Assembly: GCF_040267685.1 (NCBI RefSeq)
Contig: NZ_CP158367.1
Location: forward strand, 992,001 to 1,056,000
DNA from: Proteinivorax tanatarense
GTDB taxonomy: Bacteria > Bacillota > Proteinivoracia > Proteinivoracales > Proteinivoracaceae
Direction: 5' to 3'
Length of the DNA stretch: 64,000 bases
The position numbers were made by a program, and so were the translations under genes. The notes under the pieces are model-generated. The model saw only the letters and a program-made list of their open reading frames with translations, searched no databases and had not been told where the DNA came from. Shown piece by piece: positions 1,937-47,924 of this stretch; positions within the stretch are counted from its first letter, which is position 1, and the number at the start of each line of letters is the position of its first letter.

Positions 1937-1973
1937 ATAAAAAAATCCTTGCCGTTTTATGACAGCAAGGATT
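1937..1973 (-). terminator. Attenuator terminator in the carB leader
   Basis: On the minus strand AATCCTTGC (1973-1965) pairs with GCAAGGATT (1952-1944) and is followed by a run of T, giving an intrinsic terminator about 45 nt before the carB start. Its left arm can instead pair with AAGGAT inside the upstream PyrR-like loop, the usual terminator/antiterminator switch. Confidence 0.85.
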
Positions 1974-2030
1974 GGCCACCACGACGACACAGATATCCTG
2001 TGGTTATGGTGGTGATTTTATGTACAAAAT

Positions 2031-2066
2031 CTATACGCATCCTTACTAGCCTCACGGGACCAGTTT
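2031..2066 (-). promoter_or_regulatory. PyrR-type binding loop (pyrimidine attenuator)
   Basis: The minus-strand RNA contains GGUCCCGUGAGGCUAGUAAGG. This matches the conserved PyrR anti-antiterminator signature (UCC-N-G-N-GAGGCU-N3-AAGG) of Firmicute pyr operons. PyrR with UMP is known to stabilise this hairpin and cause termination downstream. The site lies between the predicted start near 2084 and the terminator at 1937-1973. Confidence 0.85.
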
Positions 2067-2090
2067 AAAAGACCTTTGCAAATTGTTAAT

Positions 2091-4179: not shown

Positions 4180-5118
4180 GACAGGAAAATTCAAAGGCGA
4201 ATTTACAATTTACAATGGACAATTGACAATTTTAACCCATTTGGACAATTATACATGTTTTTCTCTCAGAGGGTGGTGATCTCTGTGTAGGTGCAAAACC
4301 GTAATTGGCTATAGTAAACGCCTCGCAGAAAATCTCCAACGTCACCCTGAGCCTGCCGAAGGGTCTAGCCCACAAGGGCGCAGGACCCACACAACGAACA
4401 TAAGACACGAAACCATCCCACAAAGAGGGTAGGGGGCGACCTCAGTGTCGCCCCGTCCTACATGGCTAACCAATTTAAATACGTTTTCCTTTAATGTACT
4501 TTTCCTATCCAACAATCCAACCATCTTCTATCTAACTAGGTTTACACGCCGTAGCTTAGCATATAGCTAATATCTAAAATAGAGACATATTTTAGTAGGT
4601 TTTGCTTCAAAGGCAGTAGACAGGGAAATTCAAAGGCGAATTTACAATTTACAATGGACAATTGACAATTTTAACCCATTTGGACAATTATACATGTTTT
4701 TCTCTCAGAGGGTGGTGATCTCTGTGTAGGTGCAAAACCGTAATTGGCTATAGTAAACGCCTCGCAGAAAATCTCCAACGTCACCCTGAGCCTGCCGAAG
4801 GGTCTAGCCCACAAGGGCCCAGGACCCACACAACGAACATAAGACACGAATCCACCCATCAAAGAAGCTAGGGGGCGACCTCAGTGTCGCCCCGTGCTAC
4901 ATGGCTACCCAATTTAAATAAGTTTTCCTTTAATGTGCTTTCCCTATCCAACAATCCAACCATCTTCTATCTAACTAGGTTTACACGCCGTAGCTTAGCA
5001 TATAGCTAATATCTAAAAATAGAGACATATTTTAGTAGGTTTTGCTTCAAATGCAGTAGACAGGGAAATTCAAAGGCGAATTTACAATTTACAATGCACA
5101 ATTGACAATTTTAACCCG
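4180..5118. repeat. Tandem repeat, unit about 440 bp, two full copies plus a partial third
   Basis: The segment starting CAGGGAAATTCAAAGGCGAA recurs with period 439 (4192 to 4631) and 440 (4631 to 5071); the third copy stops after about 60 bp. Each full unit holds an AT-rich stretch built of TTTACAATTTACAATGGACA, a copy of the CACCCTGAGC...GAAGGGTCTAG repeat, a hairpin GGGGCGACCTCAGTGTCGCC and a conserved tail. The copies are about 97% alike by eye. Short open frames in the units are not maintained and I do not call them genes. Confidence 0.9.
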
Positions 5119-31984: not shown

Positions 31985-32245
31985 CCAACACCACCAAAGA
32001 TGTAGCGCCCGGTCTCAATGTCGGCAACCAGAAAAAAGGAAAAACAAAATACCCAAACACCCAACAAAACAAATAATCCTATACCCCGCAGCCAACACCA
32101 TCAATGATGTAGCGATCGGTCTCAGTGCCGGCAACCAGAAAAAATAAAAAAATCAAACATCCAAAGAACAACAGAACAAATAATCCTATACCCCGCAGCC
32201 ACACTATCAATGGTGTAGTGGCCGGTCTCAGTGCCGGCCATCTTT
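31985..32245. repeat. Tandem repeat, unit about 106 bp, three copies, each with a GGTCTCA hairpin
   Basis: The core GGTCTCARTG at 32011, 32118 and 32223 is flanked each time by GATGTAGCG...GGCAACCAGAAAA and AACAAATAATCCTATACCCC. The third copy has the complete palindrome GGCCGGTCTCAGTGCCGGCC; the first two are degraded. The hairpin belongs to the GGNCG...CGNCC family found across the window. These lie between pepF and the next promoter. Confidence 0.85.
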
Positions 32246-38789: not shown

Positions 38790-39060
38790 CAAAAAAGTAG
38801 TGGCCGACCACAGTGTAGATATACCAATAAGACTTCCAACCCAAAATTAAAAATCATTTAAAGAAACACAAGAAGTAATAGATAAAAACCTTTCCCTCAA
38901 AGAGGTAGTGGCCGAACACCGTGTCGGCCAAGGCAACAAATACCCACTCAAGCAAGACTTCCAACCCAAAATAAAAAATCATTTAAAGAAACACAAGAAG
39001 TAATAGATAAAAACCTTTCCCTCAAAGAGGTAGTGGCCGAACACCGTGTCGGCCAAAGAC
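38790..39060. repeat. Tandem hairpin repeats, three copies
   Basis: The core TGGCCGAMCACMGTGT begins at 38801, 38909 and 39034 (spacings 108 and 125 bp). Copies two and three carry the complete palindrome TGGCCGAACACCGTGTCGGC and the preceding CCTTTCCCTCAAAGAGGTAG. Between copies is a common ACTTCCAACCCAAAAT and AAATCATTTAAAGAAACACA. Same hairpin family as 31985-32245 and 40235-40560. Confidence 0.85.
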
Positions 39061-39118
39061 AACAAATACCCTCAAAAAATAACTTCCTATCCAACCATCC
39101 ACCATCTTCTATCCAACT

Positions 39119-40157: not shown

Positions 40158-40234
40158 TGAAATGAAATGAAATGAAATGAAATGAAATGAAAGCAGAAAG
40201 CAGAAAGCAGAAAGCAGAAAGCAGAAAGCAGAAA
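40158..40234. repeat. Simple sequence repeats: TGAAA x7 then GCAGAAA x6
   Basis: TGAAA occurs seven times in a row (40158-40192), directly followed by GCAGAAA six times (40193-40234). They lie 100-180 bp upstream of the catalase start. Partial GCAGAAAGTAGAAAGTAGAA versions occur at 40339 and 40473, inside the tandem repeats. Such tracts are prone to slippage. Confidence 0.95.
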
Positions 40235-40560
40235 TGTTACCCTCAAAAATAGTAGTGGCCGCGCCTCTGTGCCGGCCAAGGGCAAAGATGGCTTCACCAA
40301 ATACACGCCGTCAGAAATGACAAACCCTCAACGCAAATAAGCAGAAAGTAGAAAGTAGAAAGCAGAAATGTTTCCCTCAAAAATAGTAGTGGCCGCGCCT
40401 CTGTGCCGGCCAAGGGCAAAGATGGCTTCACCAAATACACGCCGTCAGAAATGACAAACCCTCAACGCAAATAAGCAGAAAGTAGAAAGTAGAAAGTAAA
40501 AATGTTTCCCTCAAAAATAGTAGTGGCCGCGCCTCTGTGCCGGCCAAGGCCTAAGATGGC
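40235..40560. repeat. Tandem repeat, unit 134 bp, three copies
   Basis: GGCCGCGCCTCTGTGCCGGC begins at 40257, 40391 and 40525, exactly 134 bp apart. Each unit reads CCCTCAAAAATAGTAGT, the hairpin, CAAGGGCAAAGATGGCTTCA and a CAGAAAGTAGAAAGTAG tail. The first two copies are virtually identical. Confidence 0.92.
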
Positions 40561-41203
40561 TACCGCGACTAATCCAATTTATAACTTTTAAAATCGAATA
40601 TTGATAAAAAATTAAAAACATTATAACATATCCCTAGAAGGTGAAACCGAAGCAGAGTTTTTCCCACATTTACGGGACGCTACCCATCATGTAGCTCATT
40701 TCGCAATGTTTACCATGGCGAAATCAGTCCCATGCCAGATAACGGTTAGCAAATATTGTTGGCAAACAAATTATAAAGGAGTGTTGCAATTGAAATTAGC
40801 TATTTTGGTTCTTATATTAGTAACTACTAACAGGGGGTCAAATAATGAAGCTGAATTCCCTTATACATCGTAGCAGGTAATTCATTGCCTGCGGATATGA
40901 AACTCCCAAATGACACCAACTTCATCTAGCTATCATGGCATATATATAGCCTTAAATCTCCCTATACCGATAGATAATGAAATAACTTATCTCATTTTAT
41001 CAGTAACTACATTAAACCTACGCAAGGTTAAAAAAGTGAATCCATTAGAACAAACATGTTAGCCTAGTTGATACAGGGTAAAACCTATTAAAAAAGTTGC
41101 CGCACGCAGACTTGCACCACTACAACATCAAAAAGCTACACTTATGGCTACCATAACTACCCAACTATTTTTTATTCAAAAATACAAAGGAAGGAGACAA
41201 ACA
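40561..41203. other. Intergenic region with gene remnant and hairpin repeat
   Basis: TTG 40790 with AAAGGAGTG starts a 27-codon frame (KLAILVLILVTTNRGS...) that ends inside a GCAGGTAATTCATTGCCTGC hairpin (40873-40892). It may be a signal-peptide-encoding gene start cut off by the repeat. The rest, including 40900-41140, shows no gene. The ribosome site AAGGAGAC at 41190-41198 belongs to the sirtuin. Confidence 0.4.
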
Positions 41204-44725: not shown

Positions 44726-46179
44726 CTAAGCTGCTAGCTGAATGCTAGGTCTTTTTATGTCAGCAATAAGGCGTTGTGCACTATACTCTTCATTTTTCGT
44801 CAGTATGGCAAACAAGACCCTTATCAGTTTACAGCATATTGCTATTATCGATTGTTTTTTCTTCAGTGGATTGTGCACTCTGGTTGTGTAGTAGTGATGA
44901 ATAGAGCCAAATTCTTTATTCTTACCTACTAGTGGCATGGTGGCCTGAAACAATATGGCCCTTAACCGTTTCCTGCCACGCTTACTGATTGTTGTTTGCC
45001 CTTTATGTTTACCTGAGCTACTTTCTTTAAGTGCAAGGCCAGCTAGTTTTTGTATCTGTTTAGGTGAGTCAAAGCGCCTTATATCACCCACTTCCCCTAG
45101 GAAGCTGGATATCGTAACTAGGCCTATCCCTTTAATCTCAAGTATTTTATCAACACCTGGTATTTCTGCACACAACCTTTCTATCATCTCTAATATAATC
45201 TCATATTGCTTAGATTTATTATGATAGTCCTCTAATAACATCTTTAGTTCAAACCTAGCTGCTTCAAGGCCTTGTGTGACGCCTATACTACTTTTAGCTG
45301 CATTATACAAGCTCGTGGCTCTCTTTATCCCAATAGCTCTTATTTTACGTTGGCGCCATAACTGGTTAATACCCTCTGCCCCAAGTTCTACTAAATCTTT
45401 TGGTAAAGGACTAGTTTCTAATATTATTAGACTTGCTACGCCATCAAAAGCTTTAAATACTTTGCTGTATTCTGGAAAACAACACTTTATCCAGCGTTCG
45501 ATCCTATTTTTAATCATACTTAGCTCTTTGGTAATGCGAATTCTATTTACTGTTGCAGTTCGTAGTTCTGCATATACCCCTTCAGGCATATATGGCTCAT
45601 TAAATCTTCCTTCTATCACTAGTTTAGCTATTGTTTTAGGATCCTTAGCATCTGTCTTTGATGGATGGTTATCATCAAGCTCTTTGCTTCTTTTTACATG
45701 AAACGGATTAACTAAAACTAGTTTAATTTTGTTTTTTTTAAGACTTTCACCAAGGCTAAACCAATAATGGCCAGTAGGTTCAGCACCAACTATAATGTCT
45801 GTCTTGTTTGTTCTATCTTTAATCTTTTCTAACCAAGAGTAGAATCTGTAAAATCCTTCTTCACTGTTGTAAAATTTAAATACCTTATCCAGTTCTCGTA
45901 TAATAAGTTTTAGATAGAAAAACTAGTAGCAAATAACTTCTGAGAAAACAGTGAGCGTTTATGCCGCGAAAGCCTGTTTACGTGGGGTAGCACCCTCTGG
46001 TAAAATCTTGATGGCGGAAGCCAAAAAAGTGTTATAATACCAACTTCCGCTTAAAAATGGGAGTCCAGAGGGTGCAGGGGCCCCATGTCAACAGGACCGT
46101 GGAATAAATGCGGGTTGCATAAAAAATTGAAAAAGCTTAATCAACTTGGATATTGAGCCCTATCTCCTAGATAATAGTA

Positions 46180-46395
46180 GTATGGAAGGATCTATCTGGA
46201 TTAAGGCTAAGTCCAACTGCAGCAAGACTGCTAGGATAGACTGTCTCCCAGCTAATAGTTGTACTGCAAACTCACAAGCTGTATCTCTTGCCTGACATAC
46301 CGAAATGTAGCGGCTTCGGAGCAGCTTATGAATGGCAAGTTTCGAATACTTATATGCGAGTCTGTTGCCAGACTGTTAGTAACTAGGGATAGGGT
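46180..46395 (+). ncRNA. Candidate IS110 bridge RNA
   Basis: Upstream of the transposase the sequence folds into two loops. Loop 2: basal stem CTAATAGT (46252-46259) with ACTGTTAG (46372-46379); apical stem CTTGCC (46287-46292) with GGCAAG (46334-46339); between them CACAAGCT (46273-46280) matches the element's right end CACAAGTCT, and TATGCGAG (46353-46360) pairs with its left end CTCGTATA with one G-U. Loop 1: apical GCAG/CTGC near 46218-46231 followed by GGATAG (46234-46239), complementary to the right target CTATCC (47810-47815). That is the target-loop then donor-loop order of IS621-type bridge RNAs. The limits are approximate. Confidence 0.65.
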
Positions 46396-46441
46396 TCAGT
46401 ATCCAAGCCGTTCCAAATAAAAACGAAAGGAGGTCCTATCC

Positions 46442-47668
46442 ATGAATTTATTTGTTGGTATTGATGTTAGTTCTCAAAAGCTTGACACTTGTTTGCTTAA
46501 CAGCGAAGATGAGGTTTTACTTGAAGTTTCTCTACCTAATAGTTTGGTTGGTGCTAAAAAAATCAAAGAATATATTATCCAATTTGATGAGCACATAAAC
46601 TATGACCGTATTATCGTTGGTATGGAGGCCACCTCTATTTACAGCTTTCATCCTGCTACTTTTTTAGCGGAAGACTCTGATTTAAAAGCACTGGAAATAG
46701 AGGTCGCTGTCATAAACCCAAAACAAATCTCTAAGTTTAAAAAGATGTTTGATGAAGATAAGACGGATACAGTAGATGCATACCGTATCGCAGACTTTCT
46801 CCGCTTTGACCGTTTTAACGTTTCCTTGATCAAAGAAGAAAAATATATGGCATTGCAACGGTTGACTCGGTCACGTTACCAGCTAGTTGGACAGCTAGCT
46901 GAGATGAAACAACACTTTATAGAAAACCTCTATTACAAATGTAATACCCTCACCAAAGAAGTTGATACATCTATTTTTGGTGCAACTATGATGGATTTAC
47001 TAACTGACTCTATCACTCTTGATGAAATCGCTGATTTGTCTTTAGAAGATTTAGTGGAAGTTCTTCAACAAAAAGGCAAAGGTCGGTTTAGTGACCCAGA
47101 AAAGCTTGCAAAATCAATTTCTAAAGCTATTAAAGACTCTTACCGCCTTGGTGACATGATGCAGGATTCAGTAGATGTTGTTTTAGCTTCATATGCTATG
47201 ATGATTAAAACCCTGAAAAAACAAATCAAAGAGCTTGATAAAGCAATCGGGCGTTTATTTAAAACAATACCTGAATCTAAGTCTTTACTTAGCATACCTG
47301 GTGTTGGCCCAGTTTATGCCGCCGGTATAATCGCAGAATTAGGTCAAATTGAACGCTTTGAAAATGAAGCAAAGGTAGCAAAGTATGCTGGCTTACATTG
47401 GAAAAGAAAGCAGTCTGGTGATTTTGAATCCGAAAGAACAAATATCACAAAGACAGGCAATCGTTACCTTCGATATTACTTGATTGAAGCTGCCAATTCA
47501 GTGATGCGAAATGAACCTGTCTATAGAGAGTATTATCTTAGAAAGTATGAAGAAGTACCTAAGAATCAACATAAAAGAGCACTCGTCCTTACCGCAAGAA
47601 AATTTGTGCGCATGGTGGATGCGCTGCTACGCAATCACCAATTTTATGCACCAGAAAGGAGTGCATAA
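46442..47668 (+). CDS. IS110-family recombinase (transposase)
   Basis: A 408-residue DEDD recombinase. Catalytic-fold acidic residues are placed at LFVGIDVSSQKLD (Asp), IVGMEATSIY (Glu) and DKTDTVDAYRIADF (Asp pair). A coiled segment follows (IKTLKKQIKELDKAI), then the Transposase_20 domain SLLSIPGVGPVYAAGIIAEL with SERTNITKTGNRYLRYYLIE, where the catalytic serine of the family should be. AAAGGAGGTCC ribosome site. Intact and probably active, given the clean insertion into a related element. It shares only distant similarity with the interrupted copy. Confidence 0.95.
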   Translation: MNLFVGIDVSSQKLDTCLLNSEDEVLLEVSLPNSLVGAKKIKEYIIQFDEHINYDRIIVGMEATSIYSFHPATFLAEDSDLKALEIEVAVINPKQISKFKKMFDEDKTDTVDAYRIADFLRFDRFNVSLIKEEKYMALQRLTRSRYQLVGQLAEMKQHFIENLYYKCNTLTKEVDTSIFGATMMDLLTDSITLDEIADLSLEDLVEVLQQKGKGRFSDPEKLAKSISKAIKDSYRLGDMMQDSVDVVLASYAMMIKTLKKQIKELDKAIGRLFKTIPESKSLLSIPGVGPVYAAGIIAELGQIERFENEAKVAKYAGLHWKRKQSGDFESERTNITKTGNRYLRYYLIEAANSVMRNEPVYREYYLRKYEEVPKNQHKRALVLTARKFVRMVDALLRNHQFYAPERSA

Positions 47669-47924
47669 ATATCGAATAATATTCGATGCGTAATCCTTTG
47701 TTTATAGCCTAAGATACCTTAGGCTTAGTTAAGTGCGCCTTTTTTAGAAGTTTCACTACATATTTTATTAAAAACATTTTGCTAGATAACTTGACTTATT
47801 ACCACAAGTCTATCCCTCTCCAGTCAAAAGCTCTAGCATAGTGTATTTCACTAGCTATATCAATACCTATGACAATTGTTTCTTCTTTTACTTGATTAAT
47901 TTTGTTATTTTGGTTAAAATTCAT

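What the first reader, a model, noticed from the sequence alone, without database searches (positions are those of the whole stretch)
45895..47811. IS110-family element with a bridge-RNA-like fold whose loops match its own ends
Left non-coding DNA folds with basal stem CTAATAGT/ACTGTTAG and apical stem CTTGCC/GGCAAG. The loop segments CACAAGCT and TATGCGAG correspond to the element's right end (CACAAGTCT) and left end (CTCGTATA). In the preceding loop GGATAG is complementary to the target's CTATCC. Two-loop RNAs that pair with donor and target DNA are the known basis of IS621-type recombination; this copy gives an empty site for a direct test.
Basis: partly seen in the sequence, partly recalled or inferred. 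Interest (0 to 1): 0.8.

Follow-up and report, generated by a model that had tools for sequence, protein, structure and literature searches.

The report
IS110 transposon with its guide RNA
This is a jumping gene of a known RNA-guided kind; its close relatives use a guide RNA that recognises ribosome-binding sites and insert just in front of genes, whereas this copy sits inside another transposon's gene and its guide matches only half of its own site.

Summary
Confirmed: window 45895-47811 is a complete IS110 element with an intact transposase (46442-47668). Its left end carries a bridge RNA (46148-46404) with a covarying fold (24 of 42 consensus pairs changed on both sides). The donor loop mirrors the right end: in 22 of 25 relatives, with 12 different right-end hexamers, it contains the element's own hexamer exactly (0 of 2000 shuffles reach this). 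Joined flanks restore an in-frame second IS110 gene and align gap-free to an intact copy.

Half wrong: only the right target guide fits this copy's target (4 of 5; 3.6% of background CT sites do as well); the left guide fits 0 of 7.

Beyond the finding: in the clade (41-84% protein identity to the window) the left guide reads like the 16S anti-Shine-Dalgarno sequence, and copies sit directly upstream of Shine-Dalgarno motifs: an open start codon lies 10-13 nt away in 34 of 43 copies and 15 of 21 later-sampled ones, against 5.5% of background sites. IS900 is a precedent for this target; a link to a bridge-RNA guide was not found in the papers searched.

The parts
45895..47811 (+). complete IS110-family element, CT core at both ends (45895-45896 and 47810-47811)
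   Evidence: ends set by comparison with copies in other genomes; joined flanks restore an ORF and align gap-free to an intact copy
46442..47668 (+). IS110 transposase/recombinase, 408 aa; D8, E62, D109, D112 and S325 align with IS621 D11, E60, D102, D105, S241
   Evidence: Pfam, NCBIfam NF033542, alignment to IS621 in the PDB, residues checked, catalytic residues as named in PMC11208158
46148..46404 (+). bridge RNA, closed by a long covarying basal stem
   Evidence: consensus fold of 15 sequences, 24 of 42 pairs with changes on both sides; single-sequence fold z -4.4
46209..46218 (+). left target guide position (AAGTCCAACT here; CCTCCT-like in most relatives)
   Evidence: alignment position next to the GCAG..CTGC hairpin; 0 of 7 matches to this copy's left flank
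46219..46231 (+). small hairpin inside the target loop
   Evidence: pairs 112-115/122-125 of the consensus fold
46232..46239 (+). right target guide (TAGGATAG); complementary to CTATCC at the right flank
   Evidence: 4 of 5 matches beyond the core
46252..46259 (+). 5' arm of the stem under the donor loop
46372..46379 (+). 3' arm of the stem under the donor loop
46273..46280 (+). left donor guide CACAAGCT, same as the element's right end
   Evidence: tracks the right-end hexamer in 22 of 25 elements
46353..46360 (+). right donor guide TATGCGAG, complementary to the left end CTCGTATA with one G-T
46287..46292 (+). 5' arm of the donor-loop upper stem
46334..46339 (+). 3' arm of the donor-loop upper stem
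47791..47796 (+). TTGACT, -35 box of a promoter that forms only when right and left ends join in a circle
   Evidence: 17-nt spacing to TATAAT of the left end; same layout in all 10 elements printed
45899..45904 (+). TATAAT, -10 box of the junction promoter
45955..46112 (+). 158-nt imperfect palindrome lodged between the left tip and the bridge RNA; absent from the G003 copy; related palindromes occur outside IS110 in other genomes
   Evidence: fold z -6.8
44726..45894 (-). C-terminal part of the interrupted second IS110-type transposase gene
47810..47924 (-). N-terminal part of the same interrupted gene
   Evidence: joined reading frame; 93% identical intact copy in G002

Best explanation
An IS110 element that moves by bridge-RNA-guided recombination. 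The element excises as a circle; joining its ends builds a promoter (TTGACT, 17 nt, TATAAT) that transcribes the left end. The RNA has a donor loop that pairs with the element's own joined ends and a target loop with a left and a right guide that pick the insertion site, exchanged at a CT core. In the clade as a whole the left guide carries CCUCCU or a variant, like the 16S anti-Shine-Dalgarno sequence, so copies land immediately upstream of Shine-Dalgarno motifs, with the gene reading away from the element. The window copy is an exception: its left guide has diverged, and it lies inside the coding sequence of another IS110 gene, matching only its right guide. Shown here: element, ends, empty site, RNA fold, donor-guide and target-guide agreement across relatives. 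Inferred: transcription, circle formation, recombination, and how the window copy came to its odd site (guide change after insertion, or an off-target insertion).
For: Transposase with both IS110 domains and the IS621 catalytic residues. Covarying RNA fold, donor stems kept. Donor guide tracks right end, 22 of 25 exact, shuffled mean 2.5. Left guide vs left flank, 41 copies of 21 lineages (window and L106 left out): 212 of 287 matching positions against 172 in shuffles (0 of 5000 reach it); right guide 108 of 205 vs 86 (2 of 5000); 5 or more of 7 left matches in 76% of these copies vs 1.4% of background CT sites. Start codon with open frame 10-13 nt from the core in 34 of 43 and, in genomes searched later, 15 of 21; background 5.5%. 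Of 7 plasmid records opened, 6 have an annotated gene on that side, and in 5 of these 6 the annotated start codon is 9-12 nt from the core.
Against: For the window copy itself the left guide matches 0 of 7 and the right-guide match could be chance (3.6% of background). L106 also fails (1 of 7). 9 of 43 and 6 of 21 copies lack a start codon with open frame at 10-13 nt, and one annotated plasmid record does not fit (L193). No transcript evidence. Guides and some ends were read by eye from alignments in which flanks were visible; copies of one genome are not independent.
Confidence: 0.88

Rival explanations
1. Survival bias: copies land broadly, and only insertions that spare coding sequence (upstream of genes) persist; the resemblance of guide to Shine-Dalgarno is incidental.
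For: Insertions into genes are often harmful (general knowledge). The window copy and L106 show that other sites can be hit.
Against: Selection against gene damage would not fix the distance to the start codon at 10-13 nt, nor the orientation, nor make each lineage's guide fit its own variant better than another lineage's. Single examples: guide ATGCCCTCCT with flank ATGCCCTCCT (L188), guide TCACCACCT with flank TCACCGCCT (L187).
Confidence: 0.07
2. The window copy was placed by exactly its present guides, with a bulged left pairing (TCCA of guide and flank).
For: Right guide fits 4 of 5; TCCA occurs in both left guide and left flank, two bases out of register.
Against: In register 0 of 7; a shared 4-mer within a few offsets is expected by chance roughly one time in ten (my estimate, no call). 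The other copies agree in register.
Confidence: 0.2
3. The window copy's left guide mutated after insertion, or the insertion was off-target, so the present RNA would not re-target this site.
For: Left guide 0 of 7 against the site; sister copies in G002 and G003 carry Shine-Dalgarno-type guides; intact relatives show that the site itself has hardly changed.
Against: The right guide does fit. A single copy cannot show the order of events.
Confidence: 0.6
4. The folded DNA is only transposon palindromes and attenuators, not a guide RNA.
For: The left end does hold an unrelated palindrome (45955-46112), and Rfam finds nothing.
Against: The palindrome lies outside the bridge RNA and is missing from the G003 copy; the agreement of donor loop with right end across 12 hexamers has no other simple reading.
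Confidence: 0.03

Closest known systems
IS621 and the IS110 bridge-RNA systems (PMC11208160: passages and section 7 read; PMC11208158: passages read)
   Same: Recombinase domains and catalytic residues, CT core, bridge RNA in a long left end, left and right guides in two loops, promoter formed at the circle junction
   Different: Protein only distantly related (E 2e-9 to IS621); different guides and targets; a palindrome between left tip and RNA
IS900 of Mycobacterium avium subsp. paratuberculosis (PMC8141618, passages read; Doran 1997 known only by title in its reference list)
   Same: IS110 family; published target motif CATGNNNNNNTCTCCTT is a start codon and Shine-Dalgarno in the same order as here
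   Different: Actinobacterial; the passages read tie the target to no guide RNA; its sequence was not compared here
seekRNA elements ISEc11/ISEc21 (PMC11187229; passages and section 13 read)
   Same: RNA from the noncoding region guides a DEDD transposase; naturally different guides for different targets
   Different: Other targets; the IS1111 members keep the RNA downstream of the gene

Membership tests
IS110 family (IS110 group) | DEDD (RuvC-like) domain plus Transposase_20 domain | tested here: met
   PF01548 and PF02371 above cut-off; NF033542 265.5 bits against cut-off 140
IS110 family (IS110 group) | catalytic D, E, D, D and serine | tested here: met
   D8, E62, D109, D112, S325
IS110 family (IS110 group) | long noncoding left end upstream of the gene, short right end | tested here: met
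   547 bp before and 143 bp after the CDS
IS110 family (IS110 group) | insertion at a CT core without further target duplication | tested here: met
   gap-free empty site
bridge RNA | conserved fold with target loop and donor loop | tested here: met
bridge RNA | donor guides match the element's own ends | tested here: met
   this copy 6 of 6 for the left donor guide
bridge RNA | target guides match this copy's target | tested here: inconclusive
   right guide 4 of 5, left guide 0 of 7
bridge RNA | target guides covary with target across copies | tested here: met
   0 and 2 of 5000 shuffles
bridge RNA | promoter at the right-left junction | tested here: met
   sequence only: TTGACT, 17 nt, TATAAT
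bridge RNA | RNA is transcribed and binds the recombinase | not testable with these tools
   needs RNA-seq or pull-down

The most novel reading that the evidence does not exclude
A widespread IS110 clade, in the window's phylum, in named Bacillota and common on enterococcal plasmids, whose bridge RNA reads ribosome-binding sites: its left target guide imitates the anti-Shine-Dalgarno end of 16S rRNA, giving a target next to most genes while sparing their coding sequence; the window copy is a natural escape from that specificity.
Probability: 0.75. Interest if true: 0.65.

Novelty: new member of a known kind. Interest (0 to 1): 0.5.

Why it matters
The element adds a well-documented, single-copy IS110 system with a confirmed empty site. 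More broadly, one clade-wide rule (guide equals anti-Shine-Dalgarno, site equals ribosome-binding site) would explain both where many of these elements sit and the older observation that IS900 sits at translation-initiation signals, and it gives a ready set of natural guide-target pairs, with partial mismatches, to test how strict bridge-RNA targeting is.

Tried and rejected
Rfam search of the window at gathering scores gave one match, far from the element; the left end at E up to 10 gave none. Own genome searched for a second copy: none; the other three IS110 proteins are 23-27% identical. Own genome searched for a site fitting the window's guides (AGTCCAACTATCCT, up to 3 mismatches): 229 matches against 239 for the control pattern, best 2 mismatches, so no clearly better site. 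Near search of plasmids with the whole element: none. Idea that the left-end palindrome comes from the start of a REP-associated transposase gene (arm TTTATGCCGCGAAAGCC; MPRKP in L175; family recognised by eye): one such case among the 30 loci translated, rejected as probable coincidence. Idea that the palindrome is a necessary part of the element: rejected, as the G003 copy lacks it. A covariance model of the bridge RNA was not built.

Rows left out: of 46 oriented elements, L068 (no upstream sequence), L067 (left flank at contig end) and L072 (left tip not found) are not among the 43 copies; window and L106 were left out of the shuffle test but counted among the 43. Later-sampled set: 26 loci examined, 4 without a recognisable left tip, one duplicate (L137) removed, 21 counted; for L144 the rule picked a tip other than the one seen, and it was counted as a failure. 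Guides were read by eye after the flanks of some copies had been seen, and the stem arms of relatives were also picked by eye; the donor-guide test was done by rule.

Full report
Observation. The quoted strings are all present at the stated coordinates. The element runs from 45895 to 47811 with a CT core at each end. Its single long gene (46442-47668, 408 aa) has both IS110 Pfam domains, passes the NCBIfam model for IS110 RNA-guided transposases, and aligns with IS621 in the PDB (E 2e-9); D8, E62, D109, D112 and S325 fall on the catalytic D11, E60, D102, D105 and S241 of IS621 (residue roles from passages of PMC11208158). It is the only copy in its 3.09-Mb genome.

Empty site. Joining base 45894 to base 47810 gives one open frame through a second IS110-type transposase (...DWRGIELDKVFKF...; my first join was one base short and is superseded). 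An intact copy 93% identical at the protein level exists in G002, and the joined flanks align to it without a gap at the junction (92% over 394 columns). So the insertion site is certain and lies in coding sequence.

Bridge RNA. Close copies exist in G002 (two) and G003 (one) at 80-81% DNA identity, and more distant ones elsewhere. An alignment of 15 left ends folds into one long basal stem, 46148-46404 in the window, with 24 of 42 predicted pairs (basal stem and others) showing changes on both sides in at least one sequence.

Donor guides. The six bases before the last base of the right end differ among elements (12 kinds in 25 elements). In 22 of 25 the same six bases stand in the donor loop, at +33 to +36 after the right target guide; the other three match 5 of 6. 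Shuffling right ends among elements gives 2.5 exact matches on average, and 0 of 2000 shuffles reach 22. The search within the loop was done by rule. The joined right and left ends also form TTGACT/A, a 17-nt spacer and a TATAAT-like box in all 10 elements printed, the arrangement reported for IS621 (passage of PMC11208158).

Target guides. In the clade the left guide usually ends in CCTCCT or a variant, and so does the left flank. Of 43 copies with both ends, two (window and L106) fit 0 and 1 of 7; the other 41, from 21 lineages, agree at 212 of 287 left positions and 108 of 205 right positions with lineage guides, against 172 and 86 when guides are shuffled among lineages (0 and 2 of 5000 shuffles reach the observed value). 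Five or more of seven left matches are found in 76% of these copies and in 1.4% of 3568 background CT positions. The guides were read by eye, which may favour agreement. For the window copy the right guide fits 4 of 5, which 3.6% of background CT sites also reach, and the left guide 0 of 7.

What the targets are. Read on the other strand, the left flank is a Shine-Dalgarno motif followed by a start codon. A start codon 10-13 nt from the core with an open frame was found in 34 of 43 copies, and 40 of 43 have at least 5 of 6 bases of AGGAGG there; the background of CT positions in the same flanks gives 5.5% and 6.5%. With a wider spacing of 6-16 nt the count is also 34 of 43, against 12.4%. In genomes of the class of G356 searched afterwards (348 genomes; the copies of G356 itself not counted again), 15 of 21 pass the frame test, 17 of 21 have ATG at 10-13 nt and 18 of 21 have the motif. 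On plasmids, 418 of 72,556 records hold a relative at E up to 1e-60, 388 of them Enterococcus. I opened 7 of these; of the 6 with an annotated gene on that side, 5 have the annotated start codon 9-12 nt from the core; in the sixth (L193) the annotated start lies inside the element.

Reading. The left guide copies the sense of the 16S rRNA end (CCUCCU, recalled) that pairs with the same sites in mRNA, so the bridge RNA would pair with Shine-Dalgarno DNA as the ribosome pairs with Shine-Dalgarno RNA. The gene downstream keeps its ribosome-binding site; what happens to its transcription was not examined. The window copy departs from this: guide GTCCAACT, site in coding sequence. Whether its guide changed after insertion or the insertion was off-target cannot be decided from one copy. 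A site of the usual kind (CAT TAGTAGGA CCTCC) lies roughly 120 bp to the right, at the start of the interrupted gene, and was not used.

Known work. Bridge RNAs and their guides are known for the whole family (PMC11208160: passages and section 7; PMC11187229: passages and section 13). A Shine-Dalgarno and start-codon target is known for IS900: motif CATGNNNNNNTCTCCTT, few insertions in genes (PMC8141618, passages; the title of Doran 1997 in its reference list says that IS900 targets translation initiation signals). I found no paper that links such targets to a bridge-RNA guide. The searches were IS110 with Shine-Dalgarno, IS110 with bridge RNA and ribosome binding site, an IS110 family, target site and Shine-Dalgarno sequence search, bridge RNA with Shine-Dalgarno, IS110 with ribosome-binding site and target sequence, and IS110 with anti-Shine-Dalgarno. 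Mostly listings were read; the library lacks most subscription journals and preprints, and target logos in figures and supplements of the papers named were not seen.

Palindrome in the left end. Between the left tip and the bridge RNA lies a 158-nt palindrome (45955-46112; fold z -6.8). It is present in both G002 copies and missing from the G003 copy. Related palindromes lie outside IS110 elements: next to genes that I recognise by eye as IS3-type transposases in G002 and G026, and at other places in other genomes. An arm pattern with up to 2 mismatches hits 45 of 398 genomes; G002 has 10 hits, but many single hits elsewhere lack the second arm. Other clade members carry different palindromes at the same place (L005, L069-L074). 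It looks like a passenger; a role in expression is not excluded.

Verdict. A real IS110 element with a real bridge RNA; ordinary in kind, above average in documentation. The more interesting result is the clade-wide ribosome-binding-site targeting.

Noticed in passing
window 45955-46112; relatives L014, L015, L023, L025, L035, L156, L166, L171: 158-nt imperfect palindrome inside the left end, with related copies next to IS3-like transposases and in other places in several genomes of the phylum; outer arms conserved, interior variable, promoter-like TTGACA and TAGGCT/TACAAT boxes inside some copies.
   Followed up: partly
L005, L069-L074, upstream of the bridge RNA: Other members of this IS110 clade carry different large palindromes at the same place between left tip and bridge RNA.
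   Followed up: no
plasmids collection, e.g. L187-L189, L193: Relatives of this transposase (about 60% identity or less) are very common on Enterococcus plasmids: 388 of the 418 matching records.
   Followed up: partly
L106: Second copy of the clade at a site without a Shine-Dalgarno fit (1 of 7), and with CA instead of CT at the right core; possibly rearranged.
   Followed up: no
window 4180-5117, 31985-32238, 38829-39071, 40205-40561: Tandem arrays with units of 439, 107, 125 and 134 nt; at least the units at 38829 and 40205 share a GC-rich palindrome-like stretch (GTGGCCG..GGCC).
   Followed up: no
window 1937-2075, minus strand: PyrR-binding-site RNA motif (Rfam RF00515, 59.6 bits).
   Followed up: no
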